Shown here: positions 11,013-30,466 of the stretch, in pieces
Layout: the number at the start of each line of letters is the position of its first letter
Numbering within the stretch: the first letter of the stretch is position 1
Source of the DNA: Lepidurus packardi
Taxonomy: Eukaryota; Arthropoda; Branchiopoda; Notostraca; Triopsidae
Length of the DNA stretch: 64,000 nucleotides
NCBI GenBank assembly: GCA_023053545.1
Contig: JAKZAN010000005.1
Coordinates: 2,790,001-2,854,000, forward strand
Reading direction: 5' to 3'
Made by a program: the position numbers and the translations under genes
The notes under the pieces: generated by a model
The model's database searches: none
Told to the model about the DNA's origin: nothing
What the model saw: the letters and a program-made list of their open reading frames with translations, nothing else

Positions 11013-12383
11013 GCAGGAACTGGACGTGGAAGACGTTGTTCTTCAGTCCGTGCAAACTCACCTGCAATCGGCGTATCAGCCAAATAATTTCTCACACGAG
11101 TATGCACTTCAGCAAAATATGCAAATGCAATACGCGGACAATTATGTGCTTCCGGACGGAGTAAACGCTGGGCCTCTGAATGCTGATCAAACGTTGCCGA
11201 TCACCGAATCGTGGCCTGGCGAATTTAACTTCCAGGTCCATTTCTCCGATAGTGAAGACAAAACGAAACAAACTCCATGGACTGTAAATAATCTTTAAAA
11301 ATTGTGGAGCGGTCTAACTATTAATGCTCGCACTTGATTTCTTTCAGTACTCATCGGAACTAAACAAACTCTTCGTGAATATAGACAAGGCGTGTCCAAT
11401 CAAATTTACTCTAAATCCTAGACTTTTTGATTACAGCCTTTTTTCCGTGGAAAGTTACCTTGTGTATGCCAAAGCTGAGGATGCAGTTCAGCCAGTGGAG
11501 CGCTGCGTCAATCATAAATCGGCGTCCAAGAAAAGTAATGCCGTAATCCTTAATCGACCTCGTATATTAAAGGTAGTGAATACTTGTTTAGTCGGAGATG
11601 CCTTTGGGGACCATATCCTTCGGTGTGACCTTGAAATGTCCTCCTATGGCAATTCGAATGGACGTTTTGTGGTGAGCGCGCATCTTGACACACCTCGTCC
11701 TGGAACCGACGGTATACTCCGTCATTACCGTTTTATGTGTCTGAATTCTTGCATCGGCGGAATTAACCGACGCCCGCTCATTCTGCTCTTCAATTTGATG
11801 CTCAAGTATATCAACTCTTTTGAAAGTGATTCATAATAACTTTGGGTATCTTCAGCGATCAACTTGTGGGACGCAAGACAGTACCGGTCCGAATCTGTAG
11901 TTGTCCCGGTCGGGATAAGCAATCAGAGGAAAATAAGCAAAAGCCCCAGAACGAAGCTGGGTCCACAGCTCTAGTGAACCTCGTTATACCTCCACCCCTA
12001 CAACGAGGAAAGAGGAGGAAAGTAACCGAAACTGCGCAGTCTACCGCTGTTAAACCGGAGCGAGTAACCCAAACTGACGTTAATGGAAATGAGTTCGTAG
12101 ACATTCGGGTGGGGATTTAATGCGCTTAATTGCATTCAGGAAGTTGTTAATGAAAGCAATTTTAGGTTTATGGTCGAGAAAATTTTGACACTGTAGAAGC
12201 TATGGTGGAACGCCTTAATACCGCGTATTTCGAGCTGACGGAATTGCGCAAGTAATTTCGATGCATCTCTAATACTGTATATTTCTAATGGCTGATCGTC
12301 ATCTTAGGGTTATGGAACAACAACAAAAAGCGATCGAGCTGCAGCAGATCAAGGAAGAACCGGGCGATGTTTTACCGCTGTAA
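11013..12383 (+). CDS. p53: p53 family transcription factor (start codon not resolved)
   Basis: A sequence-specific DNA-binding tetramer of the DNA-damage response. Exons join in phase: 11013-11283, 11348-11805, 11856-12108, 12166-12251 and 12308-12383 (380 aa shown). The DNA-binding domain begins SWPGEFNFQVHF and TYSSELNKLF. The zinc ligands are present: Cys and His in VERCVNHKS, and two Cys in YRFMCLNSCIGG. DNA-contact arginines are in GINRRPL (equivalent to human R248) and VRICSCPGRD (R273). Exon 3 then holds a basic GKRRKV patch, a likely nuclear signal. The tetramerisation domain starts FVDIRVYGRENFD and continues MVERLNTAYFELTELRK. The tail ends QQIKEEPGDVLPL, where IKEE fits the SUMO consensus. 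There is no SAM domain. The N terminus is acidic but its start is missing; a short upstream exon is required. A diverged copy of the last codons and 3' UTR lies at 26940-27564. Confidence 0.95.
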
Positions 12384-12893
12384 ATGTGAACTTCTGTCAT
12401 TTTGATTTACCATTGGTCTCTTTTTAATTCCAATTACCTGATATAATTGTTTACGCCCTACTGGGGAAGACGAAAAGTTTCAGATATCAACTGAAAATCT
12501 AACTTTGAAAATGCAATTCTTTTTTTGCACGTAAAAAATGTTTCTGGTTTGATTTTTGCTGCTTTGCCGGGTTTCATTCTCCTATACCCTATGTTGTTCT
12601 GTTTAGACGTTGATATCAAACGCGGTACTTTCGTTGCCTAGAGTTCAAGTGTATTCTCATGATCTGTTTTAGCCAGAACGATTTTAAGTTCAGTTATTTT
12701 GAGTATAGAAAATGTGAATGATGTGTTAAACCCATTTTGACAATCAGGGTTCCGTGCCTTACTTTTACATATTGAAATACAAATTGCCTTCTCCTAAAGC
12801 GCTACCTTATGTAAGTACTTTAGTCTTGGTCAAACTTTCGCCCTTTTCTAGAATGCGCCATAACTCCGGTAACAACTTTTGGACGTTGGATCG
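12384..12893 (+). other. p53 3' UTR and flank, duplicated at 26.95-27.56 kb
   Basis: The block downstream of the p53 stop codon is related along its whole length to 26955-27564, with scattered substitutions and a roughly 90-bp indel. Shared words include GCGCCATAACTCCGGTAACA and TAATCAGGGTT/CAATCAGGGTT. The similarity stops at about 12893 (TTGGATC). From about 12810 it overlaps the end of a retroelement Gag remnant read on the other strand. Confidence 0.7.
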
Positions 12894-13900
12894 AAGGCAA
12901 CGAAAGCAGGCTCCATTCTTCTTCAGTTTCTCCAATCTTTCTTCAGGATTCTCGTTTAATCCTTTTTGGCAGATGGTCAGGTTGCAGTTTTTGAGGAACA
13001 ATTCACATGCATCTCTATGATCTTTGTTGTGTTCCCCGGACGCTGCTGCGGTTAATCCGGCTCCTGTAGCCGTCTTCTTGGTATTATGCATATCGGGAGC
13101 TCTTTTGAAATTATCTTGTGTCCGACTCAAGATCCGTTTTGAGCATTGGATCTTTTCCTTTGCTTTGACTTCTTTTAGAAATTTAAGAAGTCTCCCTTGA
13201 GAAATTTGTACGCTTTCCGGGCCTCTCTTTCAATTGTTCTTATTCTCGTCGGGAAGTCGAGATAATACCTTTGACGCCACTACTTAACTACAGAATCAGT
13301 TGTTGTTGTTGAGCGCGCGGATATGAAATGCCAAAGTTTCATACACCTTCCTTAAATCGTTCGTCTTACCATCTCGGACGGGTCTCATTTTCAGAAGCTC
13401 AGCGATTGTTGATCTGAGATTATCTATTCGCTACCATAGCGATCCATTAGGAGTTCCTTTGCTACTGCGTAATTGTCTTCATGCTTTTCACGGTTTTCAA
13501 GGCTTCGCCTTCTAAATAGGATTTCAGGTAGGAAAGCTTCTCACAATCTGCGAGGTCTTCATCGTCTTCGACAGCTGAAATGAAAGAGTCCCAGAACTCC
13601 CAGGTCATCCATCATATCCAATCCGTCAAACTTTTTCATATCTATCTTGGGCTTTCCGATGTGGCTCTTGTTTCTTCTGCTGACTGGTGAGGCCACCTCG
13701 AACAGATTTTCATACGGTGTTGCTGTTCCATCTTCGGCGTCAAGTTCGGGAGCGCGCAGACCTTCGTCAGCGTTTGTGTTGAAGCCGAAATTCCGGGACT
13801 TTTCACTGGTTCGCGGGCTAACGCATGCCGTTTTCAAACGTATTCGCGGGTTCAAGCTTTCCCCGGTTAGGTATCGATTTGTCTTCTGCTGCTCGATTCT
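12807..13900 (-). pseudogene. BEL/Pao-type retrotransposon Gag remnant
   Basis: Reading the minus strand from about 13860 down, the frame gives KPKIDMKKFDGLDM, then, with frame changes, residues like WEFWDSFISAVEDDEDLADC, KLSYLKSYLEGEALKTVK, YAVAKELLMDRYG and LRSTIAELLKMRPVRDGKT. It ends with a Cys-rich stretch (DACELFLKNCNLTICQKGLN, then NGACFRCLRS). This order (F-x-G-x3-W-x2-F-W-D-x-F, then an E-G-x-A-L motif, then C-x-C-rich modules with GxCFxCL) is characteristic of Gag from BEL/Pao LTR elements. Several stops and frame shifts interrupt it, and no protease, RT or integrase follows, so it is a fragment. No LTR pair was identified. Confidence 0.65.
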
Positions 13901-13931
13901 TTAAAAGTGATTTCGGGAATTAAATAGTTTT

Positions 13932-13995
13932 GCTCCCTCTATATACTTATTACTCTATGGGTTGAAGCATAGAGTAATAAGTATATAGAGGGAGC
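13932..13995. repeat. Perfect 28-bp inverted repeat with 8-nt spacer
   Basis: The left arm 13932-13959 starts GCTCCCTCTATATACTTATT. The right arm 13968-13995 is its exact reverse complement, separated by GGTTGAAG. A transcript from either strand would fold into a stable 28-bp hairpin. It lies immediately upstream of the start of the Gag remnant (minus-strand sense), so it may be a by-product of element insertion or gene conversion. No function can be assigned. Confidence 0.9.
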
Positions 13996-16335
13996 GTTGA
14001 GGCCTTTCCTTACGGAAAGTTTGTTACCACTTTCGAGAGCCCCAGGCTAACCCCATGAGAGGAGGAGGTTGGCCAGAACTTTTTGGGACAGCGGGAACTA
14101 AGAAAAACGGAGTTGAGCTGTAAATTGATACCAAATGAACTTCATCGATTTCTTTGCCTTAGCGGAGACCAAGCGGGAAATTTGTAAACATTAATCCGAA
14201 CTATAACCGGATCATAGCGACCATTTAGAAAATGCACATATTTATATAATATAACGAGTATGTATAGAATAAAAACAAAAAGTCGATACATGAGAAAAGG
14301 CGGGGGGGGGGGTTACAAAAAATGGGTTTTGACATTACAAGCGTATGAATTTCCGACATAGGGATACGGAGAATTGACTTTAGTTCCCGGATTTTGCTGC
14401 TTTCATTCAGGGGGGAAAGTTTCCTTTCTAGAGAAAGTACTCGAAAGAATGTCAAGTGAAGCACATACTAAACAGGACAATAATAAAATGACAAGTAAAT
14501 CCTTAAACTGAATGTATGGCATTTCCATGATCAGAACAGCCGTTTCCAACGTGAATTGCGCCTATGTCGTGATAAATAATTAGTTCCGTATTACTAATGC
14601 CATTAGCCCAGATATTACAAGTCCTGACTTGTAAAAAAAATGCATTTTACATCAGATATAAACTGAAATTATAATATTTGATTAAGCGCAACGATAAGAT
14701 CACATTAGTCCTGCATGTGTACGTGTTCAATACACCAAGTTCTCAATTCGTATATACCGCTGCTAGTTGTAATTGATTCATGTTTATAATATTGTATTGC
14801 CATTTGAGAAGTTCTTAGTCAATAAGCTTAACCAACGATATCGATATGTAATGTACAGCCAATCAGCGACAAGGACCTGCTTCGTAATCTTACAGCCAAT
14901 CAGCAGCAATGACCCCCCTATGCAGTCCTTCCTTTTCGCTGCATTTTGGTGTAACAGACTTCTGACAGGGACCTTACCCCCTTGGCTCAACCGACCTTGC
15001 CGAGCTGGCGCTCCCATGCGGGCTTCTTACGCACTTGCCCGGCTTTCCGATGCGGGACGCCCGAAAGCGACGAAACGAAGCGCGGGAGAGCGGATTTTTG
15101 GGCCAATCGCGGCAATCAGCTCCAGAGTTGGGAAAACGTGCAATGAGCACCCCCTTTTCATGCCAGTTATGCAAACATGTTGGACTGTGGGAGAATGTAT
15201 GCCTGTTCGTTTGAAATAAAGAAAAACTTTTTGAGAAAACTCGCCTTCTACTTTTGTCTGGAGCAGTAGGCTCCCGTTTTCGAGGCGTCCTTGGGAATGA
15301 ACTCATTCACACTCTTTTTTTCATCTTGGCTGTTTCATTATGTCGGTTGAATCTTTTTCACCTTTTTGAATCCTTTGGAATCTTTTTCTCATTTGCTATT
15401 TCCGAATGCCAGCTGCAGACAATAAAGCCTTCTTAGCGTGTTTCCCTTAGCTTTTACTGTGTAGATTGACCCCAGGTTTCTGGAAATGAATCCGTTCTTT
15501 CGATTTGTCAAGAAGGAAAAAAGGTATTTTGTGCACAAAGGTGCGACATGGGTGTTGCCCTCAATTAGTAAACGACCCCTAAATTTTTCTTTTAATTAGT
15601 CAAAAAAGAACGACCAGGTGGGACACAGAAAAGAAATACAGACATTCCTCCATTAAAAAGCCGAGGGTAGGACATGGAGGCATAAATCACGGGTTTATGC
15701 ATATGTCAACTGGCGGTGCACCAAAGTCACTTTCGAAGCCAGCTCATCGCAATCTGGCCGTTGACGCTAAACGGGGGTCTCCTTTATTTTATTTTTTTTT
15801 GCGGGGGGGGGGGGGGGGAGGGAGGGAGAGGCATTCAATTCCCGGTAGACTCGTAAACCATATTTTCTCACGCATACCCTTCGCGAAAATTCTGGCGCTT
15901 GGCTTTTAGTATCGACAACGTTTTTTTCCCATGAGGCTTCTTCCAACGGTTTTGAGAAACGCTGGCTGGCTTGAGGTTTTCGAGACCAAGTTTTTTTTTT
16001 TCTCCTCCCCCACCTCCCTTGCCGTTCTTTGACGGGCCCGTTCTGTCAAAACTGTTGCACGATATAACGATGTGTACCGCGTTGTTTCAACTTCAGTTCC
16101 CAACCATCTTTCATGCTGTTTGGAAACTTTCAGCCTTTGCTCTCTTTTGTGAGATTTCAAGTTTACGTTTTCGTTTTGTTTATTTGTTCGTTCGTTTGTG
16201 TGCCGTAGTTTGATCTTTAACAAGTTTTGCTGACGTTAAGGTAAAAGACAAAATCACATTGAATAATGGATTGCGTTGTGAGATTCACTTGGATGAACTA
16301 ATTTTTTTTAACCTGGCAGGCTTTATTGTGGCATC
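13996..16335. other. Non-coding or unassigned stretch with homopolymer runs
   Basis: No convincing gene. Two overlapping open frames at 14773-15306 on opposite strands look like chance frames in GC-richer DNA, with Arg/Pro/Ser-biased composition. A poly(A)-like AATAAA occurs at about 15218. A T-rich tract is followed by a run of 16 G at 15803-15818 and a GGGAGGGAG tract. Confidence 0.4.
15803..15818 (+). repeat. Poly-G run of 16, followed by a G-rich tract
   Basis: Uninterrupted G followed by AGGGAGGGAG, which could form G-quadruplex structures. Length is probably variable between individuals and sensitive to assembly error. Confidence 0.8.
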
Positions 16336-17492
16336 ATGCCTAAAGAAGCCTTACCCGACAAGGTATGGGGGGATCGTTTGCGCCAGTACCTTGCTGGGAA
16401 TTTTCAATTTGCGAAAGGACAGCGCCCGTCAAAGACTTCACCGTGGGGTCGTCGCTTTGCGGCAATTGACAAGTGTCCAATGCGTCACGGGAATGATAAG
16501 GACTTGTTTGGCAACCCCATTAAATGCACCTGCTCGTTCCACCGCCCGGCCTCGGTTAGTAATCCCTCGAAGTTTCATTTATTCCACTCAAAATTATTCG
16601 CCTATGCCGTATCCAAACGCTTGATACTTGATGCATTTGCTAGTCGGGAGCTGCGTCTACTTCCCGAAGATCTGGAACGCTTTCGGCGGCGGCGTCACCT
16701 GGCTCCGGTGCTCCCGTTCCGCCGTTGCCAGTAAAGGAGTCCAGCCCCGGCAAAGCTTTTGAAGCCGTCGCCTCAAAAGCGTCCGAGTGTCGTCCCTGCG
16801 CCGAATGTAGCTGTCGCTAGGAAGTAAGTTGAACCACCCAATTAAAGTTTGTTTTTGGCAACACGTAGACCTTTACATTCGCACCTGTCCCTCTTAACAG
16901 AGTAACCCGTGCCTCTACTGCCCCAGCGACTGTTACCAAACCCACTACGCCAGAGTCCCAGCCTCCGCGCGCAGAAACGCTAGTCGCCCAGGAACCTCCT
17001 GCTGCTGCCCATCCTACGCAGGAGCAACTGATCGATGTTACCCCATTGCCCTCCGCTTTTGACGTTGGCACAACTTTGACGTACGTTGGCACTTGCGTAT
17101 TCTTTTATTACTATTATTATTACCAAGAGTTTAAAAGATAAGCTTCACTAAAAGCCCTGGCATTCCACAGTTTCTTAGTACCGATAGTGACCCCCAGCAT
17201 TGCCACGCCCGTTCAGGCTCCAGCTTCAGAGTCAGAGTCAGTACTTCCTGGCGTTTTGGACCGTTATTCCCTATGCCTTGCCCTACCGAGGCTTTATGAG
17301 CCCCGTACCAGCCATTTTCTCCAAAGAGTGCCATATGATGTGTCTGTAAGCTCGAATCGATTTATGAAATTGGAAGAAAAGGTGTTCATACTAAATTTAT
17401 TTGATTTCTTTTCAGTCTTTGTGGCAAAACAAAGTTCAGTCTTTGTGGCAATTTACAAAGAATTTGCCAATGCGGTGATTCCAGCCTTTTAG
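16336..17492 (+). pseudogene. Possible multi-exon gene or pseudogene with a Cys/His motif and Pro/Ala-rich body
   Basis: An open frame from 16336 begins MPKEALPDKVWGDRLRQYL and contains a possible zinc-binding cluster: CPMRHG, then CTCSFH about 13 residues later. It follows a good splice acceptor at about 16320. Downstream, a donor near 16821 (ARK) joins in phase to an acceptor near 16900, giving a Pro/Ala/Thr-rich stretch (TRASTAPATVTKPTTPESQ and onward) and then further short candidate exons at 17181-17345 and 17416-17492. An in-frame TAA at 16732 breaks the simplest reading, so either an intron of about 100 bp (16553-16660) removes a piece and shifts frame, or the gene is broken. I do not recognise the family. 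It may belong to a repeat-borne family like the gene at 24971-26130. Confidence 0.3.
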
Positions 17493-19176
17493 AGAATGTT
17501 TTTAGAGAACGACGTGTGCAAGAAATGATGGTTTTGGATTCCTAATTGACAATTTGACAATCGAAATATAATAATATAATAATATCGTAATTGACAGTCG
17601 AAATTTATTGCTGGATGCTGAGGTACTTTAAACTTAATTTAGTTTGTATTTTGTATTATGCAAACCCATAATACTCTTTTGGGAGTATTATGTGTTTGCC
17701 TAATACTCCCAAATTACGTTATAATTTGTCTGGGTTCATCTACGTATACATTGAATGTTTCTTTGTCTAAAAACGTCATTTCTAGCACAAGAAGGGAGCA
17801 TCCTAGCCCAGGAAACAAATGTGGATTTGTTGCGTCAATTGTCCGATTATGGAGATTTCCGCTCCTCTTTTTACATTTTAAACCATCCAGCTGCCTTCTC
17901 CTGTGTTATGGGAGTAAATGCACGTTTGACACGAAGAACGAGGGGAAAAATACGTACTGTATTCAACACTTCAACTGTCGATGTTACAACAATGACAGTG
18001 TAAATGATACTTAACAATGGGGGGTTGATTTCACGGGCACGCCTATCTCTTTTGTTCACTTGACAAAACCTCTGTTCTCTAAGACCACTCTTTCTCTTCT
18101 GTCTCCCTTGGATTCCCCACTCCCGAACTCAACTCACTTTTCTACCTCGGGGGTTGACATCGTACAAACAAGGTAACACAAAACAAAACAAGGGAAAACT
18201 GGTGCCCGTTTACCTCAAGCCTAGCGCTTACTAGTGCACATGTACCGGGGTACATAACACCTGTATTTATGAATACGGAAAGAAACTCAATTTGGATGAT
18301 TTTGGTGAAGTGCTAAGAGCTGCGAACAAAAATCCGGTAATATCGTAAGATGTTGATTTCTGAATTTATCATCATTATTTTGTGTTTAATTAATGGATGG
18401 ATCTCGCGTGTTAAGGTTAATTTTTCTTGATTTTTTTTCCGTAGGTGAGTTTTTGCAGTATGCAAAAAAAGAAAATCGACCCGACCGGCAAAAAAATGGT
18501 AAAAATCGACCCGGCAGTAGAACTGGCAGTGATAATTTGGCTCCAATAACTAAAATCAGGGCAACAAACATCCTGTGTGGTAATAATACTCTGATGCCCG
18601 AGACGAAAGTCACGATAGGCACTACTGCGGTATTCACGATGCGACGTGAAATTCAACAACCATGTGAAATTATGCATTTTGTGACATTGCTTCGTTCATT
18701 GACATCTGTGCCAAAACAAGTGGTGAGAATAAGCGATTATCATACGAAGTCCTTGAAAATTGGATTCTAGAATGCGGCAGCTTCTAAAACAACCAGTGGC
18801 CATAATCTGTATAATCCTACCTGTATATTGTGTAATAGCATACATATTGCACTGTATATTCAAATTTGCATGAAGAATACTGGATTAAGGACCCGGTCTA
18901 GCAACTTTGGAGACTTTTTCTTCTAATAGAGTGTTTGCCAAATTACGCCTCTGGTGGCAAGGGGTAAGAGAAGATTCCCCACAGCCAAAACCTGTTTTTG
19001 CTGATCCTGTAAACTCACCGCAACTGCCCCCTAATGACAATTCCCCACACGAAAATTTACCACAGTATGATAATTTAATACTGACATAAATGGACAGAAG
19101 TAGTCGATAATGTGCCCGTTAGATGGCACAGTTTTCACTAAAAACAGTCCAACAACAACAACATTAATACTGACAT
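17493..19176. other. Unassigned AT-rich stretch with small ORFs
   Basis: Contains short TAA/TAAT-rich tracts (17566-17590), a 10-bp inverted repeat at 17669-17694 (CATAATACTC / GAGTATTATG), and open frames at 17755-18003 and 18393-18770 that I cannot assign. Composition and lack of splice context argue against the second. The first contains a protein-like stretch (ETNVDLLRQLSDYGDFRSSF) and could be an exon of something unrecognised. Confidence 0.3.
19169..19176 (+). repeat. Left 8-bp target-site duplication of the hAT element
   Basis: ACTGACAT, repeated exactly at 23104-23111 on the other side of the element. Eight bases is the diagnostic duplication length for hAT transposons. Confidence 0.92.
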
Positions 19177-19192
19177 CAGTGTTCTGGATCGA

Positions 19193-19330
19193 TGCTTTTT
19201 GTGTGATCTTAGATCATGTCCGATCGTCGTCAACTTCTGTCAACCCGATCAGATCAAAAGTTGCAAAAAATCATAAGATCTAGATCAGATCGCAAAAAAA
19301 GCTTTGTCGATCAGATTAAAGATCAGATCA
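19193..19330. repeat. Left subterminal GATC-type repeats of the hAT element
   Basis: Several copies of AGATCA, GATCAGATC and close variants occur within about 150 bp of the left terminus and match the motif at the right end (22970-23090, including an unbroken GATCT-GATCT run). Inference: these are transposase-binding sites. They are AT-poor islands in an otherwise AT-rich element end. Confidence 0.7.
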
Positions 19331-20064
19331 TTTTTTTAAAAAACAATAATTAGGAGTAAACTTAAGTACTATTATGCTTAATAAAGGCGAATTGATCACG
19401 AAAAACGCATTTATTACTTATGATATACAGTAACAAAGTACCAGTAATAATAGGTTACGGCCAAATCAGGAAGGTTACTCTTCCAATAGCTCCATATATG
19501 CGTATACCGCTATTTTAGAAATCCCTATTTCAGTAATCAAAATTAAAAATAAATAACCGTTTAAACAAAAAAAAATCGCGAAGTTCTAAACCCCGTTAGA
19601 AAGTTTCTGTCTATGGGTATATACATATAGACAGACATTCGACCATTAATGAAGGTCTTGTCGAGAGGTTTAATCAAGACTTCAGAGTTGGACGTACTTT
19701 TTGGTTCGTCAGCACTTACAGCATTTCTGTTGTCCGATTCCTATAATCTGACTCGTAAACGAAAAACTTTAGTTATTAATAAAATCACAGTTTCTTTATT
19801 GCAATACTGGTTACACATTATAGGAACATATCCAAGGCAATTTGGCAGGAATCATGCACCCGGTTATTAAGACATAGGCAGGAACTTAGTTATTAAGACA
19901 CATTTGGCAGGAATCACCAGGTTATTAAGACATATCACATCACTTAGTTATTATTAACATGAACAAAATTATGGCATAGTACATGGTCATTTGCTGCAAA
20001 CGCTTATTTGCTGTGCGGATTTTTTGTATCGCGTCTAAAATACTTTCGGCGAAGAGAAATCAGA

Positions 20065-22623
20065 CTACACCTGCAAATGAGCGTTGCGCTTAATGAAAAG
20101 CAGAGAAGAAAACAGCTCAGGTTTCGTGCGATTTCTCTTCGCCGAAAGGATATCCGAAGCTGTAGAAAAAATCCGCTCTATGTTCGCCGTGGACGCTGGA
20201 ACAACAAACACGTCCTTAGCAATTTCCGACAAAAATGGAAATCGGTGAGCATTTAATTCCCAGTACTTAAGAGGGCTAAACGAAAGGTCTATATCGCAGT
20301 CTGTTGCGTCCCCTTGGGAGAAAATCACTGGCTCATTCAGGTACGTATCAACTTCATTCCTAATCTTTTCAGCCCCGTGAAAAGCCGCACGGCGCACCGC
20401 CACCGTGCTAAATAACGGACGTAGGCCTATTGCTTTCTTCATTTCAGGACTCCTCTGCGAGGCAACTTTCTCCCCACTCTCTTCTTGCACTACGATGAAA
20501 AACAATTCCGTATAGGTACACACACAGCTTTATTTACGGCAATTATGTAATTTCTTACTAAAGGGATACCGGGCTTCTAGCTCCTGTTTCACAAGGTTGA
20601 CTACTTCGTATTCCGACCGCCCTGACAACGGAATCCAGCTCTTCTTAAACCGAGGGTCCAGAAAAGTTCCTGTGAAATCATACACATAGTCTCTCAAGAA
20701 ATAATTCGCAGAATTTGTTACCTAGCACATAGAACGTGTCATGTAGAACACATTCCATGCGTCGCTTTAACGATTGGTGTAATACACTTGCGAAATGTTT
20801 GCTATGAACGATCAATGCGCCATCGGGATTCACATTCCAATCCGAGGACGTCCTGTTGACCATGTCCAGATATGCCGGGATCACCAGTCCCGTGGTTTCG
20901 AAATCTTTTTGGAACGCATCCGTAGCCAACTTTAAGGGTCCCAAAAGAGCTGTGAGTTCTTTGAGCATCTTACATTGCAGAGCTGATAGCTTGCCAAGCT
21001 TCTTACAAGCGTTAAGCTTGTTTTGCAATTCTTTATCCAGATCCACTGCCTCCAAAAATTTATCGAGCATTTTATATTGGGAACTCCAACGCGTCACGTT
21101 TTGAGGTGGTATCTGGAATCCGACGGTGCTACTCAGAACTTCGGTATCGAGAGTGCTTTTTCGCACATACGCTACTATTTTTGACACTAAATTCACTGCA
21201 TTCTTCAGACTCCCCTACTCGTGGAAAAAAAAAAGTTTTTAGTTTAGAAAGAAAAGTGAGTTTATACCCTTACGTCTAGAGCTTTTAAACCGTCTTGTAC
21301 GACAAGTTGTAATGTATGGGCTACACAACTTGCCCGAGAGGTAGCAGATAAAGGATGGGACGATTGGCTTGCGAGAAATGCATGTTCAAAGAATAAATTG
21401 TTCAAATCCAGCTCAATCTGTTCGTATGCTACCTCCTCTTCTCTGTCAACTCTATTCAGATCTGCCATATCTTCTTCCAGCTCATCGGCAACGTTGTACG
21501 ACGAAACCTCAACTTCGTACTGCACGTCAAGATCTAATACTTCGACATTTTCAGGATCATCGCTCTGGGAGTACCCGAGAATGCCGAGTGAACTTGGGTA
21601 GCCCGGTAGAGATATGAGTGTCCAGCCGGGTAGAGAAATGTCGAAAGCACACTTCATATTGCTACCGCTGTCTGTAAGAATCCGGATCACCTTGTTAGGA
21701 AAAAAAAAACGTTAAAGAACGAGCTAACGAAAAATAAGTTAGAGATTACACCTTTCTTTGTAACTGCCATTCGTTTATAACACTTTCATATTCTGCGAAA
21801 ATGGCTGCGGCCGTATGGCGACCAACCATCTTCTTTATTGATAGCAAGCACGTAAAAGGCACAAAATCTGATGTTACTGCTGAGCAGGATATACCAATAT
21901 AGCCCTCCATCCGCTTGGATGACCAAATGTCAACCATGATTGCACAGGCTTTTGCGCTATCGAGTTTGGCTTGAACTGCCTGTTTGGTCTTCTGGGTTAG
22001 TTCCGGAATAAGCGTACGGCGGAGGCGTTCTTGGCTTGGTATGGCATAACTTGGGTCTAGTGCCTTTAAAATTCCCCAAGTAGGGAAAAATGAATCGATA
22101 GTTCAATTAGTTAACTTATCACTTATACCTAAAATATTACAAACTTACATTAACGAAGTTTCGAAAGCCCTGCCGGGAAATCAGGTTCAACGGAAAATTG
22201 TCTTCCACAATCATTTTCACAAGAAAATTATCAAATGCTAGACGTTTAGAAGATTTCGGTTTCACAAAACTACGATGAATTGGGTGACAGTAAAAAATCA
22301 TTAACTTAAGCTATCTGCTCATACCTGCTCATGAGTAATTGTTTCCCAGTACTCGTATTGTCTTCATCCTCGCATTTCTTGAAAATTTCCGGGTGAAATC
22401 TTTTTGCATGGCGACTCATGTTCGTTTGCGACGTCATATCCGCCGATAAATAACGCTGTTTTATACAAACCTTGCATTTGGCGAAGATCGTCTTTCCATT
22501 TGTTCGCCAGTCCTCAAAAATTAAGTTTTTCCACTGTCGCCAATTTTTAATGGAAAGCAGATCCATTGGCACGGTATTCGATGGTAACTCACCGCTCGGT
22601 TCGTCTGAGCCATCTTGATCCAT
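20065..22623 (-). CDS. hAT-family transposase, apparently intact (725 aa)
   Basis: Catalyses cut-and-paste movement of the surrounding element. Exons, all phase-consistent: 22325-22623, 22149-22269, 21752-22063, 21274-21690, 20722-21214, 20559-20669 and 20065-20489, summing to 726 codons with stop. Exon 1 holds a BED zinc finger (NWRQWKNLIFEDWR, CKVC, then HAKRFH, giving C-x2-C and H-x4-H). The central RNase H-like fold includes AIMVDIWSSKRMEGYIGISC and RILTDSGSNMKCAF, both with Asp in catalytic-type positions, then ASCVAHTLQLVVQDGL, the usual CxxH motif. An acidic loop (DELEEDMADLNRVDREEE) sits in exon 4. The C-terminal dimerisation region reads YWELNAHRFPFLSEIAKDVF, then VPASTANIERIFSTASDILS. 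ATG 22623 is chosen because the upstream in-frame codons use TTG. Introns are 50-130 bp, like host genes. Confidence 0.92.
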
Positions 22624-22969
22624 CTCACTAACTTCTTCCAATCCAATAGCTTCAGTGCTTCACTTCTACATGTAAAAAGACATCGGTGCTTCGATGAAAA
22701 GGACCTCTTTATAGCCCCAAAATGTACCCTTACTCAGGACAACCGCGAAAGCAACATTTGTAACAAATAGTATAGGGATTATTAAATTTCAATTATTACC
22801 ACAAAATTTTCTTCTGACCACGAGGCCACAAGACGAACCACGAGAACCACGAGACGATGAACCACGAGAACCATGAGCCGAAACCAACGTTTGTCAAACG
22901 TTTCGGTGTTAGAAACAGAATATAAAAATTTCCAATAGTGGCCACTAGTGGGCTAATGTTGATCGGTCG

Positions 22970-23090
22970 GGATCGGCACATTTTCTCGAAAAAATCGATC
23001 AGATCACTGCAATTTAGGGACAACGCCGATCAGATCAAAAATGGCCGATTGATCTGATCTGATCTGATCTGATCTAATCTTTTTAAAAAG
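22970..23090. repeat. Right subterminal GATC-type repeats of the hAT element
   Basis: Includes a tandem GATCT-GATCT run at about 23048-23078 and GATCAGATC words, mirroring the left subterminal block. Likely transposase-binding sites. Confidence 0.7.
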
Positions 23091-23103
23091 ATCCAGAACA
23101 CTG

Positions 23104-23111
23104 ACTGACAT
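23104..23111 (+). repeat. Right 8-bp target-site duplication of the hAT element
   Basis: ACTGACAT, identical to 19169-19176. Confidence 0.92.
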
Positions 23112-23237
23112 AGTGGAAACCCGCCTTAAAGCTTTCCTCCACTCCCCACGCTAGCCCCGCCCGATGCTTTCTTATTATTTCGGGAGATATGTCGTTCCTG
23201 ACTCCCTGTACACAAACAAAACGTGAACACATCGTGA

Positions 23238-23355
23238 AAACGAGTTGTAGTTTGTATTCAAAGTTAAACGAATTGTAGTTTGTAGTCAAATTGTAGACGT
23301 AGTTGTACGAGTTATAGTAGTTTGTAACACAAAACGAGTTGTAGTTTGTACTCCA
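23238..23355. repeat. Degenerate tandem GAGTTGTAGTTTGTA-type repeat
   Basis: Repeated AACGAGTTGTAGTTTGTA units with variable spacers. On the minus strand they give a repetitive TNYNSF-type translation, which explains the 116-codon open frame there as a repeat artefact rather than a gene. Confidence 0.6.
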
Positions 23356-23490
23356 GCCATCTTGTAAGACGGGTGCTGTCTTCTTACAAGATGGCTGGAG
23401 TCGCGCGGCGGCTAATTCGTATGGTGGCGACATATTTATTTATTTGTTTGCATTGTCTTCCCCCTCTTGAAGAAGAAGACAGCACCCGTC
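23351..23490. repeat. Nested inverted repeats (19-bp hairpin whose loop pairs again downstream)
   Basis: A perfect 19-bp arm at 23351-23369 (CTCCAGCCATCTTGTAAGA) pairs with 23382-23400 across a 12-nt loop. The loop and its edges (23368-23385) are in turn the exact reverse complement of 23473-23490 (18 bp). Both pairings cannot form fully at once, so the segment has two competing folds. No gene is evident nearby. Confidence 0.85.
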
Positions 23491-23895
23491 GGGGAGTCAT
23501 CCCTGTCTCGTACGCTTCCTTCGTCAGTGCCACCCGACGTTGCCCGGCCTCACCCTAATAGTGGGCCATTTAAAAAGTCTACCCGACTCGAAATCTGTGC
23601 ATTGAACTTACGCAGTTTAGAGCATGCTTCCCCTTCCCCCACCCGACAACTACACGAGCGGTCAGCTCGTGCAGAATAGCTGACGAGTTCTGTTAATGAA
23701 GCGAACATAGAAAGTTTCCTACCTGTAAAAAACCCGGCGTGGAAGTTACACAATCCAATGACGAGAAAACACGGAGAAAATAAAAAAAGGGAAGTGAAAG
23801 GAAAGGAGAAGCTGCCGTTCAAAGCTCCCAATCAACTGCAAGAGGACAAACAATATTGCGACTCTTAAAAAATATCCTATACTATAGTCAAGGTA

Positions 23896-24160
23896 CCGTA
23901 GTAGGTGCCACTTATTGCGATCCCTGGTTGTTAGAATCAGCCGTTGCAAAATAAAGAATATGGTCATTTGGTATAGACAAGAAAATGTAATTTCTTTCTT
24001 AATATCACTATTTTCATTTTTCTTATTTACATCATAAAACAACCTGCACACATGTACTGTACACATGTACACATTTCCGATTTTCGGTTATTAGAATCTC
24101 GATTAGAATCGAAGTAATATTCACTTGACAAACGTGATCACAATAAGCGACATCTACTCT
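23896..24160. mobile_element. Short pogo-like element (about 265 bp), relative of the copy at 2070-2758
   Basis: Both ends match the ends of the intronic pogo-like element: GTAGGTGCCACTTATTGCGA followed by TGGTTGTTAGAATCAGCC on the left, and GTGATCACAATAAGCGACAT preceded by CCGATTTTCGGTTATTAGAA on the right. The internal region is short and non-coding. It is a deletion derivative (MITE) of the same family. A TA precedes the left end; the right end is blurred by mutations. Confidence 0.72.
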
Positions 24161-24970
24161 GATGAAAATGGTATCAAAAACACCTGCACTAAAATGGATC
24201 AACTATATTTTACTTTTATTTTTAAGCTTACGAATGTTGTTGACAAAGGAGACTTGGCTTCATTAAACCATGCAGGAAACATCTTTAACGTCCAGAAAAA
24301 TGGCACCCTATTTCGAAAAATTATGAGTTGTGCTCTTACCATTAAAAAATATAAATTAAAAAACTCACGTTGATAAAATCAAATTCTTGGTCACTTGATC
24401 AATCGGTACAAGCATCCAGAATTCCGAAATGGGAAGGAGACTAGTATTGCATTACCTGAATTTAAATTAGTATTTTTTTTTTTTTACTCGATATTGAGCT
24501 TATTTTTAACTGGCGTGTTTCGTTTAATGAAGCCAGCCACCTTGATCAATAATCCATAATCAATTATTGTCCGGGGATACAATTATGAGCAATCTCTAAC
24601 TTATAGCGTTGACTGGATAAATGAACCCCTGAAAATAGAATTATTTTTATTTAATTTGGCTTTCGTTAACTTACGCGTGTTCTTTGGTAAAGCAGGATTG
24701 GTATACCACAGTATGCGAAAATCAAAATGGAGATGCAAAGGATCGACCAGAATTCTTTAAAAATAATGGAAAGAAAAGGGAGTTAATCCATCGAGCTTAT
24801 AAATAATGAAAAATATGAAGTATGTTGTTATAGAAAACTACACACCTGGGAAAAGATGGTAGCTGTTGTGTTTTATGCGAAAACAAAATCTTGAGTGCAA
24901 ACCTGCCAGATTTGACAAGGAACTCTGCCAGCCCTAAAAACATTTTAATTACAACATTTGTGTATCATAC
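24161..24970. other. Intergenic AT-rich stretch
   Basis: Nothing supportable. Two minus-strand segments (24675-24754 and 24846-24933) have good-looking splice ends and one encodes a hydrophobic stretch, but the frames that would give a membrane segment do not join in phase, so I do not call a gene. Confidence 0.3.
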
Positions 24971-26130
24971 CTACTGATTTTCTGCTGCCGCTGCACGTTT
25001 CCGGGCGTACTCTTCGCGTTGTCTTTCCAGCCATTCTGCTGGGGATAACTCTGACCCCACCGGGCAATAGCGTGCACCGTAAAACTGTGAATGTCCTCCG
25101 GTACTAACGGGTTGCCCACATTTGCTACATTTGTACGTCCGAGGAATGTTGCCAGCAGAAGCATCGTCCGGTTCGGCAGCCGCTTTTTTTCGGTGCCTCC
25201 AAGCCGTCGTCCTTGACATCGGTGGCGGGGTGGCAGACACCGAAGGTGGTGGAGGCAGCGCAGATACTGGCCTGGAGGGGCCTTCACCAGGGTCTTCCAC
25301 TGCGGGTGCAACTTCTGTCCCCAATGGAGGCAACGTCACACGGCGACGTTTAACTTTTGCCTGACCGACCGTGTCTACTACTTCCTCAAAAACAAGCGGC
25401 TCGTGAGCTTGCCGAGGTGTTGTTTGAGGAAGCTGGCGCGAGAGCAAAAGCGGCGTCGCACTCGTTAATGCGGGTTGAGGCAGGTTAATACCCTGCAGTA
25501 GCATACTGATGTCGCTAAAGCCGGTCTACCTAAGTAGACCCGCGATCCTGGTACCTAAGAGTTTAAAAGAAATGTGTTATTATTAACCTCGACATGTGCC
25601 GGGCGTTAATAAAGCTCAAAACTTACCACAGGCTCAAGGTAGTCTCCTTAATGGGATACAGAACCAGGCCGGTACCTTCTAAGAGGGTGCCACTTAGGAC
25701 ACGACTCCGTATCCCGTTGTACTTGCCCAGAATGAGCTTCCAGCGAGACACGTAAGGAGGACCTCGGACTGGTGCCGTGTATGTGTTGCAAAGGCGAATG
25801 CAAATTGCCTCCACTACACGACTCTTGGAAGGAGAGAGGGCAGGCAAACCAGCGCTTATAAAGCACCTAAAAATCGGAAGCAAGGGTTTTAGATTCCAAA
25901 GCATGCTTAAAGAACCAGACGACATAACAACGCTTACCTCTGCATGGCTTCCACTCCAACGTATCCAGTCCTATACTGGGACCGAGCAAAACGGCTCCGA
26001 GGGTCGTGGCGCAGGATGCGCCCGTACTTCAGAGGCCGTTTCTCGTACTCCTCCAACTCGCGTAGAGGCGAATGACTTCGTCAGCCTGGCTTTTGCTGAC
26101 AGTAAGGCCTTCTGTCTTGATCAACGCCGC
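24971..26130 (-). CDS. Unassigned protein with Pro-rich linker and C-terminal zinc-ribbon-like motif
   Basis: Three exons join in phase: about 25942-26080 (ELEEYEKRPLKYGRILRHDP, then QYRTGYVGVEAMQ), 25633-25866 (CFISAGLPALSPSKSRVVEA, ICIRLCNTYTAP, VSRWKLILGKYNGIRSRVL, ETTLSL) and 24971-25520 (DISMLLQGINLPQPALTSAT onward). The last exon has a Pro/Ser-rich region with a basic KVKRRRV patch, then TYKCSKCGQPVSTGGHSQFY and GARYCP, a C-x2-C...H...C arrangement that may bind zinc, and ends in a charged helix (EWLERQREEYARKRAAAAEN). The start codon was not found; the first exon is open only back to about 26100. I recall similar orphan proteins in fish and invertebrates with a GHTQFRGQRYCP-type motif, often multicopy, but cannot name the family. 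The function is unknown. Confidence 0.5.
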
Positions 26131-26667
26131 TGCTAGATAATGATATCTACTACATATCAACGAGATCTTTCAAAAATAATTCTTCGTACATTTGCAAAAC
26201 AGAAATTAAATTTCACTTTTAAAAAAACTAATTTAAAGCGTAGGTTATTAAATATATTGAAATCTGGTTATTAGTTTTTGAGTAACCGCCTACGTAGTTT
26301 TGTGAAATTTCCTCCCTACATTGTGCTTTACGCTTTACTATAAGCGTTAAAATGGCCCTAGGATTAGAAATTGTAGGGGTCACTTGGGTATTACAAAATG
26401 GAACTACGTAAACTTGAAAGTACGGTTAGCTCCGCTTACAATAATTTTCACCCCATGTTTAAAATCGAGACCAACACCAACACCGTGACGAAATTTTCGA
26501 AAACAAAACCCGACACCAACAAGAGAAATTTTTTTCGAAACCAGACCAAGACCAAGACTTTCATACCTTTGAGACAGGTATTTAGACCAGGTCTTGAGAT
26601 CCCAACGCTGCGCGAATGACACTACTGTGTAATTTTTCAGTAGCTCCGCTAGTGGAGTAAAAGAAAG
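26131..26667. other. Unassigned stretch with ACCAACACC-type low-complexity tract
   Basis: 26460-26560 is a degenerate ACCAACACCAACACC / GACCAAGACCAAGAC tract with poly-A interruptions, which explains the open frames on both strands. Nothing else is supportable. Confidence 0.4.
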
Positions 26668-26936
26668 TACATACATCCCCAAATACAAAGGGCATGATAT
26701 GAGTGGGCTCCCAATCCTATAAGAAAGGAATTTTTATTCCATTCCATTTAGAGTTTATGTTCTTCTGACAAAGTGACACTTAAGAGTTTTTGGTTTACAT
26801 TTTAAGGATACAAATATACAAACTTTTAACCCTTGTTCTTTAAGGCCCTAGAAAATTTTAATGTTCGGTAACTTCTTACTCCTTTAAAAGTAATATACTT
26901 AAACTTTTATACTTATTATCAAATACTTAAAAAGAG
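26668..26936 (-). pseudogene. Copy of the NTAN1 start codon and upstream region
   Basis: Related to 32399-32640 in the same orientation. On the minus strand the first codons read MPFVFGDVC against MPLVLGGVP of the real NTAN1, and shared upstream words include GAGTTTTTGGTTTACATTTT and AACTTTTAACCCTTGTTCTT. It diverges after a few codons, so it cannot encode the protein. Confidence 0.8.
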
Positions 26937-27564
26937 TAAGGAAGAGAGACGGTAATGTTTTACCGATGTGAATGAGAACTTGTATCATTTTGATGTATCA
27001 GTGCCTTTTTTTAAATTCCAGTTATCTGATTATGATTGTTTGTGTCCTACTGGAGAAAGCGGAAAGCTTGGAGACATCCATTGAAAATTTACCCAATTAA
27101 AAATGCTCTATTTTTTGCATGTATAAAACAGTTCTGGTTTGTTTTTTGATGCTTTGCCAGCTTCGTTCTTCTCTACCAAATGTTGTTTTGTTTAAACATT
27201 GACAGAATACGCGGTACTTGTACCCGGTAAGTGTACCCGTATTTTCATTATCTGTTTTAGCCGGAATATTTTTAAGTTTAATTATTCAGTTTGTGTCTAT
27301 TTGATATTGTCGCAAAGACAACGGTGAATATCGTAGACTTTTCCGTTCCCTTTTTAATGCGCATTTTGAGTATCCAAAATGTGAATGATGTTTAAGAACT
27401 ATTTTGATAATCAGGGTTTGGTGCTTTACTTTTATAGGTTGGAATACACATTTTCTTCCCATAAAGCAATACGTTATTTAAGTACTTTATACTGTGGCAA
27501 ACTTTACCTTTAATCATTCTTTATAATGCGCCATAACTCCGGTAACAATTTTTGGAGGTTGGAT
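26937..27564 (+). pseudogene. Copy of the p53 3' end (last codons plus 3' UTR)
   Basis: Related to about 12340-12893 in the same orientation. The last codons, IKEEPGDVLPL and stop in p53, appear as VRKRDGNVLPM and stop. The 3' UTR similarity then runs to GCGCCATAACTCCGGTAACA and ends at TTGGATC. Substitutions and an indel show it is an old copy. No other p53 exons are present here. Confidence 0.82.
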
Positions 27565-27640
27565 CCGCGTTGTGAAGTATTCTTCGCGAAAAATTCATGG
27601 CCGCTTTTCTGGAATGACTAACAGTAGAAAAATTGACGCG
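27565..27640 (-). pseudogene. Copy of the NTAN1 C-terminal coding end, with in-frame stop
   Basis: Minus-strand translation reads VIPEKRP, a stop, then IFREEYFTTRIQP, against VFPDNRPRFFRKDESGAWIQV in the intact NTAN1 last exon (30467-30751). The copy starts at the GGATCC shared with the p53-derived block, which is the junction. Similarity fades beyond about 27640. Confidence 0.7.
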
Positions 27641-28552
27641 ATTGCATTCCTCCGAGTATTACTCATCCAACTGTATTTTTCTGCTTGCTCACGTAGATAT
27701 GATAATAATGATTTTTTGTGATATGAAGGCTAATCCAAGCTAAATTTTTTTCTTAAATAATTAATTTGAAGTGCTATAACTTTTTCAAAACATGGACAAG
27801 ATTTTCTTTGTCTTGAATGCCGCGCTATTGATGCCAAAGTTCTTTCTTTTTACGTCAGTAAGTCAAACTCATGTTGAATTTCATTGACCTTGATTGACCT
27901 GGATTCGTGACGCATTGGAGTTATTACAAGGATTTTTTTTAACCTTATTCCATTTTGGCTTTGAAACTAAACTATTGAAACCCCTTGGTCAATCGTCGGA
28001 TTTAGGCAAGTTCTTGTCAGTTGCGTCGGCATGCGAAATCTGTATGTCAGAACCGATTTGGATTCCAAAAATTCGACTCCAAAAGAATCGAATCCATACA
28101 TTCCGAGTCGACTCGTATCCGATAAAAAGGCAATATTTAACTGTCTTGTAACTCTCTATTACTGTCTTGTAACGTAGAATAAACCATCTCTTTCTAGGTT
28201 CTGTTTCTTTCTATCATCTGCGAAGTACTACTAAAGTAAAGAAAAGTAGCTTCTCATTTTACTTGCAACATAATTTCAAGATAATGGTTGAAAACAAGTG
28301 CAAGCTTGCTGTAACCAAACAAATTAGTTTCGGTTCAAAATGTCAGGGCCACTTTATGAAAGCGTCTGTATGCGAACAGAATTATAAAACAACGTTAGCA
28401 GCTGTAAACATAAACAGCTGCGAAAATTAGATTCATAATCTTCTTGGATGTCTTCGCGAACAATTGAAAAAACAGGCCTGTGGTAAATGCGCTTGTCTTG
28501 CTTGTCAAGCCAAGTCATTTGTGTCCCAGCTTTGTGCGTAACTGGCGAGAAC
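27641..28552. other. Intergenic stretch upstream of the cathepsin
   Basis: No gene seen. Holds the cathepsin upstream region and unassigned AT-rich DNA. Confidence 0.4.
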
Positions 28553-28559
28553 TATAAAA
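28553..28559 (+). promoter_or_regulatory. TATA box of the cathepsin gene
   Basis: TATAAAA, 62 nt before the cathepsin ATG, with an initiator-like TCAG about 30-40 nt downstream. A strong TATA box is typical of a highly expressed, tissue-specific gene such as a gut protease. Confidence 0.65.
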
Positions 28560-28620
28560 TGAGCTCGGCAAGTTCCCGATTGACATCAATGTCAGCTGAG
28601 CTAAGAAGTAAAGCAAAATC

Positions 28621-29969
28621 ATGAAGCTTTTATTTTTCTTAGTAGTAGCCGTCTTGGTACTTTCAGCTTTTGCTGATACCGATAAAGCATGGAAAGAATT
28701 CAAGGTATAATTATCTGACGTTAGCAATAAGTAATTCATTAACGATTGTTCTTTATCTCGCTCTATTAGGAAGCACATGGAAAGCAATACAAGAATAAGG
28801 AGCACGAAGCCAAGTCTCGCATGAACTTCGAGAAAAACCACAAATTCATCGAAGAACATAACGCTCAAACGGCTCTTGGACAAGAGAAATACACCCTGGC
28901 CCACAACGAACTTTCCGATTTGGACATCGAAGAATACCGAAGAACACGATGCGGTACTAAAGTAGACCAAATACTGCCACTGACTGAGTCCCGTAGCGGT
29001 GCCGAAGCTAAATTCGATTTCTTGGTTGATGTTCGTCAAACGGACACCGTAAGCTATTGGCATTTCTAGTCCTTGAGACATCAAGATCCTTCCTTCTTTC
29101 TCATAGGTTGATTATACCACAGATGCTTGCATGACACCTCCAAAAAATCAGGGAAATTGCGGTTCATGTTACGCATTTTCGTCGGTTGCAGCTCTTGAGT
29201 AAGTTATAGAGATATTTTAAGTTACCATTAATCCTATTATTTTATTTTACCAGATTTTATAATTGCAAGAAAACCGGCGTTAAAAAAACCTTTAGTGAAC
29301 AGCAGCTTGTTGACTGTAGTAGCGCCTATGGCAACAATGGCTGCGATGGAGGTTTCTATTCTCATTGCTACGATTACATTTCGAAATCCGCTCTGGGCAT
29401 TGCGAGCGACGCTACATATCCTTACACGGCAACTGTAAACTATGTTTCAGTTTTTTCTGACGTATACCAATGTCTTGTTCTCTTAAGGTCAACAAGTGCA
29501 CATATAGCACCAGCAAAAAAGTTGGCAGTGTTGCCAGTTATCAATGGTCTCTCCCTCAAGGTGACGAATCGGTGTTGATGACTACATTCACCCTTGCCAA
29601 AGGACCAGTAAACATTGCTATTAATGCTGGGCTACCAAGTTTCCAATTATACAAGTATAGTGTTTGTTATGCGTCGCATGCAAAATCGATAACATTTTAT
29701 TCACAGAAGTGGCGTTTATGCCGATAGTAAGTGCACCACTACCGTTGATCATGCCGTGCTTCTGGTTGGTTATGGTACTGAAAACGGCACTAAATATTGG
29801 AACATCAAAAATTCCTGGGGAACTACGTGGGGATCGAACGGTAATTCGAAAGAACATAAAAAAAATTAAAGGAAAAAGTCTAATCTTCTTTATCGAAGGC
29901 TACATGAAAATGGAACGCGGTGTGAATCGCTGTGGAATTGCTGGTTATGCTTTATATCCTGTGGTGTAA
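28621..29969 (+). CDS. Papain-family (C1A) cysteine protease, cathepsin L-like
   Basis: A secreted or lysosomal endopeptidase made as a zymogen. Seven exons join in phase: 28621-28704, 28770-29048, 29107-29198, 29254-29434, 29488-29654, 29707-29840 and 29899-29969, giving 335 aa. Residues 1-19 form a signal peptide ([18 protein letters not shown]). The I29 inhibitory propeptide follows, with an ERFNIN-like helix ([19 protein letters not shown], one residue short between R and F) and [11 protein letters not shown]. The catalytic set is complete: Gln and Cys in [12 protein letters not shown], His in [12 protein letters not shown], Asn in [11 protein letters not shown]. The residue after the catalytic Cys is Tyr instead of the near-invariant Trp. 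The other family motifs EQQLVDCS and GNNGCDGGF are present. Its 3' UTR overlaps that of NTAN1. Confidence 0.96.
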
Positions 29970-30238
29970 TTTCATTGTCTCTTTTTCCAAACGTCCGACA
30001 TTTAAATGTCGAGGCGGGTTACTCTGTTTAATGGTAGAGGTAGTTAATACAGTATTCAAGCATACTAAACTGATTTTTTTTAGTAATTATTGTTCCTGCT
30101 AATTCGTCTCATTATTGTTCTTGTCTACGAAACATCATATACTTACTCATGTCTACCTCCATCTCTCTCTCCTCTCCTCTCTGTCGTCTCCAGGTGTTCC
30201 CTCTTTAGTTTTAGAATTACGAGATACATTTCCTAGAC

Positions 30239-30244
30239 TTTATT
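30239..30244 (-). terminator. Poly(A) signal for NTAN1 (minus strand)
   Basis: TTTATT on the plus strand reads AATAAA on the minus strand, 223 nt past the NTAN1 stop codon. It lies upstream of the cathepsin signal at 30273, so the two convergent transcripts overlap. Confidence 0.5.
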
Positions 30245-30272
30245 CGTTTGTTTTTACAACACTTTTTACATG

Positions 30273-30278
30273 AATAAA
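30273..30278 (+). terminator. Poly(A) signal for the cathepsin gene
   Basis: AATAAA, 304 nt past the cathepsin stop codon and inside the predicted NTAN1 3' UTR. Confidence 0.5.
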
Positions 30279-30466
30279 AAATCCACGGGACCTGTTTAAG
30301 TACACAACAATCGAGATTCAGCGCATAGGAACCCCGCCAGCCCTTTTCATTGATGTCATAGCTTTTCATACTTTTGAAATTACAGTTGCCTTCCCCCGAA
30401 AGTTATACTTATATATATGTACCGTAGCGATGTTCCCCACCTTTCCGCGTAACGTATCTTGGCTCT

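What the first reader, a model, noticed from the sequence alone, without database searches (positions are those of the whole stretch)
26668..27640. Mosaic scar joining copies of NTAN1 5' end, p53 3' end and NTAN1 3' end
Three adjoining blocks match three places elsewhere in the window, all in the same orientation: 32.40-32.64 kb (NTAN1 start and upstream), 12.34-12.89 kb (last p53 codons and 3' UTR) and 30.48-30.55 kb (NTAN1 last codons, now with a stop). The p53/NTAN1 junction falls on a TTGGATC word present in both sources. The simplest reading is that p53 and NTAN1 were convergent neighbours, the pair was tandemly duplicated, and one copy of each decayed while transposons filled the gap.
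Basis: partly seen in the sequence, partly recalled or inferred. Interest (0 to 1): 0.75.

Follow-up and report, generated by a model that had tools for sequence, protein, structure and literature searches.

The report
Scrambled copy of p53-NTAN1 gene junction
A decayed stretch of about 950 bases between two animal genes, p53 and NTAN1, is a copy of pieces of those same genes put back in a swapped order, most likely left by an ancient DNA-repair accident of a known kind.

Summary
Blocks at 26672-27619 match NTAN1 exon 1 plus upstream (32400-32635, 202/236), the p53 end and 3' flank (12351-12892, 436/641 with gaps) and the NTAN1 last exon (30479-30539, 44/61, in-frame stop), all in one orientation. 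The first two sources give E 1e-45 to 1e-73. The NTAN1 3' block is missed by blastn at E 10, but is the best place in the window in a targeted test, in register with TTGGATC. No further copy was found in the genome.

The scar reads NTAN1 5' | p53 3' | NTAN1 3', a circular permutation of the source. One tandem duplication needs a third NTAN1 copy or an extra 61-bp duplication. A copy by template switching, or by reinsertion of a small circle, needs fewer steps; both are described in human genomes. p53 homology stops at the right edge of TTGGATC, where a truncated gag fragment starts; NTAN1 homology stops at its left edge. So the genes may once have abutted. A weak p53-flank-like match left of NTAN1 keeps the tandem model alive. 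A pseudogenic fossil; modest interest.

The parts
26672..26905 (-). Scar block 1: copy of NTAN1 exon 1 start codons and about 210 bp upstream (source 32400-32635)
   Evidence: 202/236 identity, E 6.6e-73; 2 gap events, K2P 0.151
26906..26937 (.). 32-bp A+T-rich filler between block 1 and block 2; matches neither source
   Evidence: No match above shuffles to either source region. ATACTTA occurs three times across the U end and filler (82 of 5000 shuffles of this 66-bp stretch hold some 7-mer three times), but the filler's best match to the U end is not above shuffles (134 of 500)
26938..27565 (+). Scar blocks 2 and 3: copy of the last p53 codons and 3' flank (source 12351-12892); carries an extra 76 bp at 27287-27362
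   Evidence: 436/641 with gaps; blastn pieces E 3.6e-57 and 3.2e-45; 434 of 529 aligned columns in the block-wise alignment
27559..27565 (+). TTGGATC shared by the p53 copy and the NTAN1 copy; also at 12886-12892 and 30479-30485
   Evidence: 6 in window, 9.3 expected, so remarkable only for position
27559..27619 (-). Scar block 4: copy of NTAN1 last-exon codons (source 30479-30539), with in-frame TGA
   Evidence: 44/61, 0 of 200 shuffles; 0 of 2000 without TTGGATC; translation VIPEKRP*IFREEYFTTRIQ against VFPDNRPRFFRKDESGAWIQVRY. Not seen by blastn at E<=10
12351..12892 (+). Source of the p53 piece: last codons and 3' flank of the p53 gene
   Evidence: PF00870 matches in the genome only at 11342-11800 and 11833-11937
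12892..13747 (-). Piece of a BEL/Pao-like gag (label recalled from its look), abutting TTGGATC of p53; no match to the rest of the element was found
   Evidence: 83% to copies on C16 and C1, which are about 98% alike across the point where the window copy stops at 12892; no Pfam hit
13748..26671 (.). Mostly multicopy elements between p53 and the scar
   Evidence: 10811 of 12924 bases fall in matches listed: 13964-17253, 17904-18263, 19177-23105, 23368-26133, 26136-26327, 26338-26611
28545..29970 (+). Cathepsin-like (Peptidase_C1) gene between scar and NTAN1
   Evidence: PF00112 hit on the ORF 29210-29578; the 9 matches besides itself lie on contig C3, 866-1579 kb, 65-73% identity
30467..32423 (-). 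NTAN1 gene with introns, the source of blocks 1 and 4
   Evidence: PF14736 hits on exon-bearing ORFs; stop at 30467-30469

Best explanation
The scar is a decayed, order-swapped (circularly permuted) partial copy of the p53-NTAN1 tail-to-tail junction, placed between the two genes. NTAN1 exon 1 plus upstream is joined through 32 bp of filler to the p53 last exon, and the copy runs on through the p53 3' flank across TTGGATC into the NTAN1 last exon. I think replicative template switching during break repair (MMBIR/FoSTeS-like) is the likeliest route, and reinsertion of a small DNA circle opened within NTAN1 the next. TTGGATC marks where p53 and NTAN1 either once directly met or were joined in the copy by microhomology. 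Shown: the blocks, order, orientation and joins, and that no further copy was listed in the genome. Inferred: the mechanism, single-event origin and ancestral contact. I see no sign of function; it looks like a pseudogenic scar.
For: Block identities and order. Blocks 1 and 2-3 do not differ in substitution level (202/234 against 434/529, Fisher p 0.17), as one event would give. No NTAN1 body was found to the left of block 1 or right of block 4 (56 of 200 and 189 of 200 shuffles score as high). The ends lie inside coding exons (NTAN1 exon 1 at 32400, p53 last exon at 12351, NTAN1 last exon at 30539), which suggests real joins rather than ends of conservation. p53 homology ends at 12891/12892, where the gag fragment begins, and NTAN1 homology starts at 30479. 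Precedent for swapped block order with microhomology or short-indel joins: PMC7450558 (abstract and 9 passages seen) and, for swapped order, PMC7188851 (abstract, introduction, discussion and part 1 of 2 of the results read). Templated insertions at template-switch joins: PMC5120786 (12 of 28 passages seen).
Against: About 1.86 kb of NTAN1 (30540-32399) is missing between the two outer ends, so a circle opened at one point is not seen as such. Swapped order can also arise by nested tandem duplication and deletion, a caveat PMC7188851 gives for its same-chromosome cases. A weak p53-flank-like match left of NTAN1 (30362-30427 with 12762-12823, 47/67, only 11 bp out of register with TTGGATC; 7 of 2000 shuffles as good with lenient scoring, 91 of 2000 with stricter; no such match to the scar's own p53 block, 563 of 2000) would, if real, mean that the NTAN1 copy had its own p53 flank, as a tandem array predicts. 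Gap events differ between blocks (2 against 21, Fisher p 0.02) and block 4 is more diverged (44/61, p 0.035), so one age is not proved. NTAN1 beyond TTGGATC looks natural (WIQV aligned with WEKI of a solved NTAN1; AATAAA at 30244), which argues for a microhomology join rather than an ancestral contact.
Confidence: 0.55

Rival explanations
1. Tandem duplication: the segment from the p53 last exon to NTAN1 upstream was duplicated in tandem, probably more than once, and deletions and transposons removed most of it; the 26905/26938 join is the duplication junction.
For: Block 1 followed by block 2 in the same orientation is what a tandem-duplication junction looks like. The weak p53-flank-like match left of NTAN1 (47/67; 7 of 2000 shuffles, lenient scoring) would fit a third unit.
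Against: Needs a third NTAN1 copy, or an extra 61-bp duplication of the NTAN1 3' end around the cathepsin interval. Block 4 is not less diverged than the rest (44/61 against 636/763), as a later target duplication would be. Two separate events would have to break at the two edges of the same 7 bp. The weak match fails stricter scoring (91 of 2000) and two unrelated stretches among 129 score as high.
Confidence: 0.27
2. p53 and NTAN1 never abutted; in the copy, a microhomology-mediated deletion at TTGGATC joined the p53 flank to the NTAN1 last exon. This concerns the p53/NTAN1 join only and can hold within the best explanation or the tandem model.
For: 7-bp identity at the join. The NTAN1 C terminus and 3' end beyond TTGGATC look native.
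Against: The gag fragment in p53's flank starts within 1 bp of the end of the same word, a coincidence under this view.
Confidence: 0.45
3. Assembly artefact: a join of alternative haplotypes.
For: No reads were available.
Against: 14 to 28% divergence per block, no other copy listed in the assembly, no N in the window, and a 13.5-Mb contig.
Confidence: 0.03

Closest known systems
Circular-DNA-mediated segmental duplication pairs, block order A-B to B-A (Chicote et al. 2020, PMC7450558)
   Same: Swapped block order; joins with microhomology or short indels only
   Different: Those are large human duplications in a non-tandem location; this one is about 950 bp, lies at its own source locus, and lacks 1.86 kb between its outer ends
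[quoted passage not shown]
   Same: Order efghijabcd against abcdefghij
   Different: Theirs are human regions with flipped blocks over 500 bp; in their scheme the outer ends of the copy abut in the donor, here they lie 1.86 kb apart
Templated insertions of replicative template switching, MMBIR/FoSTeS (e.g. PMC5120786)
   Same: Short pieces copied from elsewhere nearby, microhomology or filler at joins, several joins in one place
   Different: Recent human clinical cases; here the event is old and cannot be timed or shown to be single

Membership tests
eccDNA-mediated (circularly permuted) duplication | Block order of the copy is a circular permutation of the source, same orientation | tested here: met
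eccDNA-mediated (circularly permuted) duplication | The two outer ends of the copy abut in the source (circle opened once) | tested here: not met
   30540-32399 missing; no trace beside the scar
eccDNA-mediated (circularly permuted) duplication | No extra copy of the unit beside it (excludes tandem duplication plus deletion) | tested here: inconclusive
   The source itself lies beside it; no further copy listed in the genome, but a weak p53-flank-like match left of NTAN1
Template-switch templated insertion (MMBIR/FoSTeS) | Short segments copied from nearby | tested here: met
   Pieces of 234 and 682 bp from the same locus
Template-switch templated insertion (MMBIR/FoSTeS) | Microhomology or filler at joins | tested here: met
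   32-bp filler at 26906; TTGGATC at 27559 may be microhomology or ancestral
Template-switch templated insertion (MMBIR/FoSTeS) | All joins made in one event | not testable with these tools
   No related genome held; substitution levels agree for the two large blocks only
Tandem duplication of the p53-NTAN1 pair | Unit order kept (p53-NTAN1-p53-NTAN1) | tested here: not met
   Order NTAN1 5' | p53 3' | NTAN1 3' | NTAN1 with both ends
Tandem duplication of the p53-NTAN1 pair | Remains of a p53 flank beside the NTAN1 gene | tested here: inconclusive
   47/67 at 30362-30427; 7 of 2000 shuffles, 91 of 2000 with stricter scoring

The most novel reading that the evidence does not exclude
Leaving out later transposons, the whole interval 12.893-30.478 kb is one ancient complex insertion into the exact p53/NTAN1 tail-to-tail contact, flanked by a 7-bp duplication (TTGGATC at 12886 and 30479), built from a gag fragment, an order-swapped copy of the pre-insertion site itself and a cathepsin gene related to genes on another contig. 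In short, an insertion that carries its own empty site.
Probability: 0.2. Interest if true: 0.5.

Novelty: new member of a known kind. Interest (0 to 1): 0.3.

Why it matters
If right, it is a nucleotide-level record in a compact animal genome of how a break between two convergent genes was repaired with re-ordered copies of itself, and it suggests that p53 and NTAN1 were once much closer. It also shows that block order should be checked before a tandem duplication is called. It says nothing about p53 or NTAN1 function.

Tried and rejected
Looked for remains of the NTAN1 body beside the scar and the p53 flank (26100-26671, 27640-28600, 12893-14000 against 30400-32750): none above shuffles (56, 189 and 193 of 200 as good). 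tblastn of NTAN1 and p53 pieces over the window gave only the known places plus weak hits; the block 1 codons score E 0.009 and block 4 E 4.6. p53 flank against the NTAN1 3' flank: weak and scoring-dependent, not used as a block but told as evidence against. Templated origin of the 32-bp filler: weak, not shown. Target-site duplication by an LTR element at TTGGATC: unlikely, because the gag piece starts inside the element there. A second p53 elsewhere: none by PF00870; a second NTAN1 is on C6. p53-NTAN1 order in print: no paper found (open-licence PMC library only).

Full report
What was checked. The window lies on contig C4 (2790001-2854000) of an unnamed 108.6-Mb genome in 344 contigs. blastn of 26400-28000 against the window finds three strong same-strand matches: 26672-26905 with 32400-32635 (E 6.6e-73), 26955-27286 with 12367-12698 (3.6e-57) and 27363-27565 with 12696-12892 (3.2e-45). 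Local alignment joins the last two as 26938-27565 with 12351-12892, with 76 bp (27287-27362) present only in the scar. The fourth block, the NTAN1 last codons, is not in the blastn list. A targeted alignment gives 27559-27619 with 30479-30539, 44 of 61, ungapped, 0 of 200 shuffles as good. With TTGGATC left out, no shuffle of 2000 reaches its score against the NTAN1 gene (Gumbel P about 5e-6); the two top scores of 506 overlapping tiles are the two tiles holding this place; and the in-register 37/54 is reached at only one of 63807 plus-strand positions, its own. The scar frame reads VIPEKRP*IFREEYFTTRIQ against VFPDNRPRFFRKDESGAWIQVRY in NTAN1.

What the sources are. The p53 DNA-binding domain (PF00870) is found in the genome at this locus only. 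NTAN1 (PF14736) is here on the minus strand in several exons. A second NTAN1, a single 351-residue open frame, lies on C6. A genome search with 26668-27640 lists the scar itself and the sources of blocks 1 to 3, nothing else.

What lies around. From 12892 to 13747 there is a piece of a BEL/Pao-like gag (label recalled from its look; no Pfam hit), 83% like copies on C16 and C1. Those two copies are about 98% alike across the point where the window copy stops. Of 13748-26671, 10811 of 12924 bases fall in multicopy matches, some with copies given as 100% identical elsewhere; candidate scoring there was capped, so these are lower bounds. Right of the scar, 28545-29970 is a cathepsin-like gene whose nine listed matches besides itself are on contig C3 at 65-73% identity. 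A search with 32600-34600 lists only itself.

Why a simple tandem duplication is not enough. Write the source as P (p53 end) - T (TTGGATC) - N (NTAN1 from 3' to 5' along the plus strand) - U (NTAN1 upstream). The locus now reads: p53-P-T, gag piece and transposons, N5'-U, 32-bp filler, P'-T-N3', cathepsin interval, T-N-U. A tandem copy of P-T-N-U explains U followed by P', but then the N3' piece and the NTAN1 gene with its own 3' end cannot both come from the second unit. A third unit, or a separate 61-bp duplication, is needed. Block 4 is, if anything, more diverged than the rest (44/61 against 636/763, Fisher p 0.035), which does not favour a later small duplication. The order N5'-U-P-T-N3' is a circular permutation of P-T-N-U with the middle of N missing. 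Swapped order of this kind is reported for human segmental duplications, where circular intermediates are proposed, with end joining or replicative template switching at the joins (PMC7450558, abstract and 9 passages seen; PMC7188851, abstract, introduction, discussion and part 1 of 2 of the results read). Templated insertions at template-switch joins are described in PMC5120786 (12 of 28 passages seen). PMC7188851 also shows how a tandem duplication with partial deletion can imitate the pattern. In its scheme the outer ends of a copy opened from a circle abut in the donor; here they lie 1.86 kb apart, which speaks against a plain circle (my inference). I therefore rank template switching first, a circle second and nested tandem duplication third, and cannot separate them firmly.

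A result against this reading. If NTAN1 at 30.47 kb were the last unit of a tandem array, p53 flank should lie left of it. The stretch 30000-30478 has one weak match to the p53 flank: 30362-30427 with 12762-12823, 47 of 67 columns, 11 bp out of register relative to TTGGATC. With lenient scoring 7 of 2000 shuffles do as well, with stricter scoring 91 of 2000. Among 129 window stretches of the same size, two unrelated ones score as high, and the scar's own p53 block shows no match there (563 of 2000). I take it as inconclusive, and have changed my odds a little for it.

The TTGGATC question. The word is common by chance (6 in the window, 9.3 expected), so only its position matters. Scar and p53 agree up to its last base, and the gag fragment starts at that base. 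Scar and NTAN1 agree from its first base. If p53 and NTAN1 once met at TTGGATC, a single later insertion with a 7-bp duplication explains both edges and the scar keeps the empty site. If they never met, the scar has a microhomology join and the gag boundary at the same base is a coincidence. Against the first view, NTAN1 beyond TTGGATC looks native: WIQV aligns with WEKI of a solved NTAN1, and there is an AATAAA at 30244. The C6 copy ends WNMFYPKKL, which does not help. I leave this at about even.

Age and unity. Substitution levels of the NTAN1-upstream block and the p53 block do not differ (202/234 and 434/529, p 0.17), which suits one event. Gap events do differ (2 and 21, p 0.02). No clock is available.

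Verdict. A real, decayed, order-swapped copy of the p53-NTAN1 junction; ordinary in kind, unusually readable, with no sign of function. Interest 0.3.

Noticed in passing
G000 C6:4549153-4549938 (locus L041): Second NTAN1 in the same genome as one open frame of 351 residues without introns in the domain (266.9 bits; the window copy's best exon match has 111.5); possibly a retrocopy or an old paralogue.
   Followed up: partly
window 28545-29970: Cathepsin-like gene whose listed relatives all lie on C3 (866-1579 kb); the best matches span the intron-bearing stretch, which hints at a DNA-level move.
   Followed up: partly
window 19177-23105: hAT-looking transposon (label recalled; Pfam gave no such hit for the ORF 20678-21214) with copies given as 98-100% identical at C16:736.5-740.4 kb and C1:4289.9-4293.8 kb, so probably recently active.
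   Followed up: no
window 27287-27362: 76 bp present in the scar and absent from the p53 flank; no match to 10000-13500 above shuffles; insertion or loss not decided.
   Followed up: partly
window 1808-2068 and 2773-3037: Direct repeat, 77% identical, near a kinesin-like ORF (label recalled); not examined.
   Followed up: no
window 12383-13100: No AATAAA or ATTAAA downstream of the p53 stop on the plus strand; the p53 3' end may be altered by the gag fragment.
   Followed up: no
window 30362-30427: Weak p53-flank-like match (12762-12823, 47/67) left of NTAN1, scoring-dependent; it would matter for the tandem model.
   Followed up: partly
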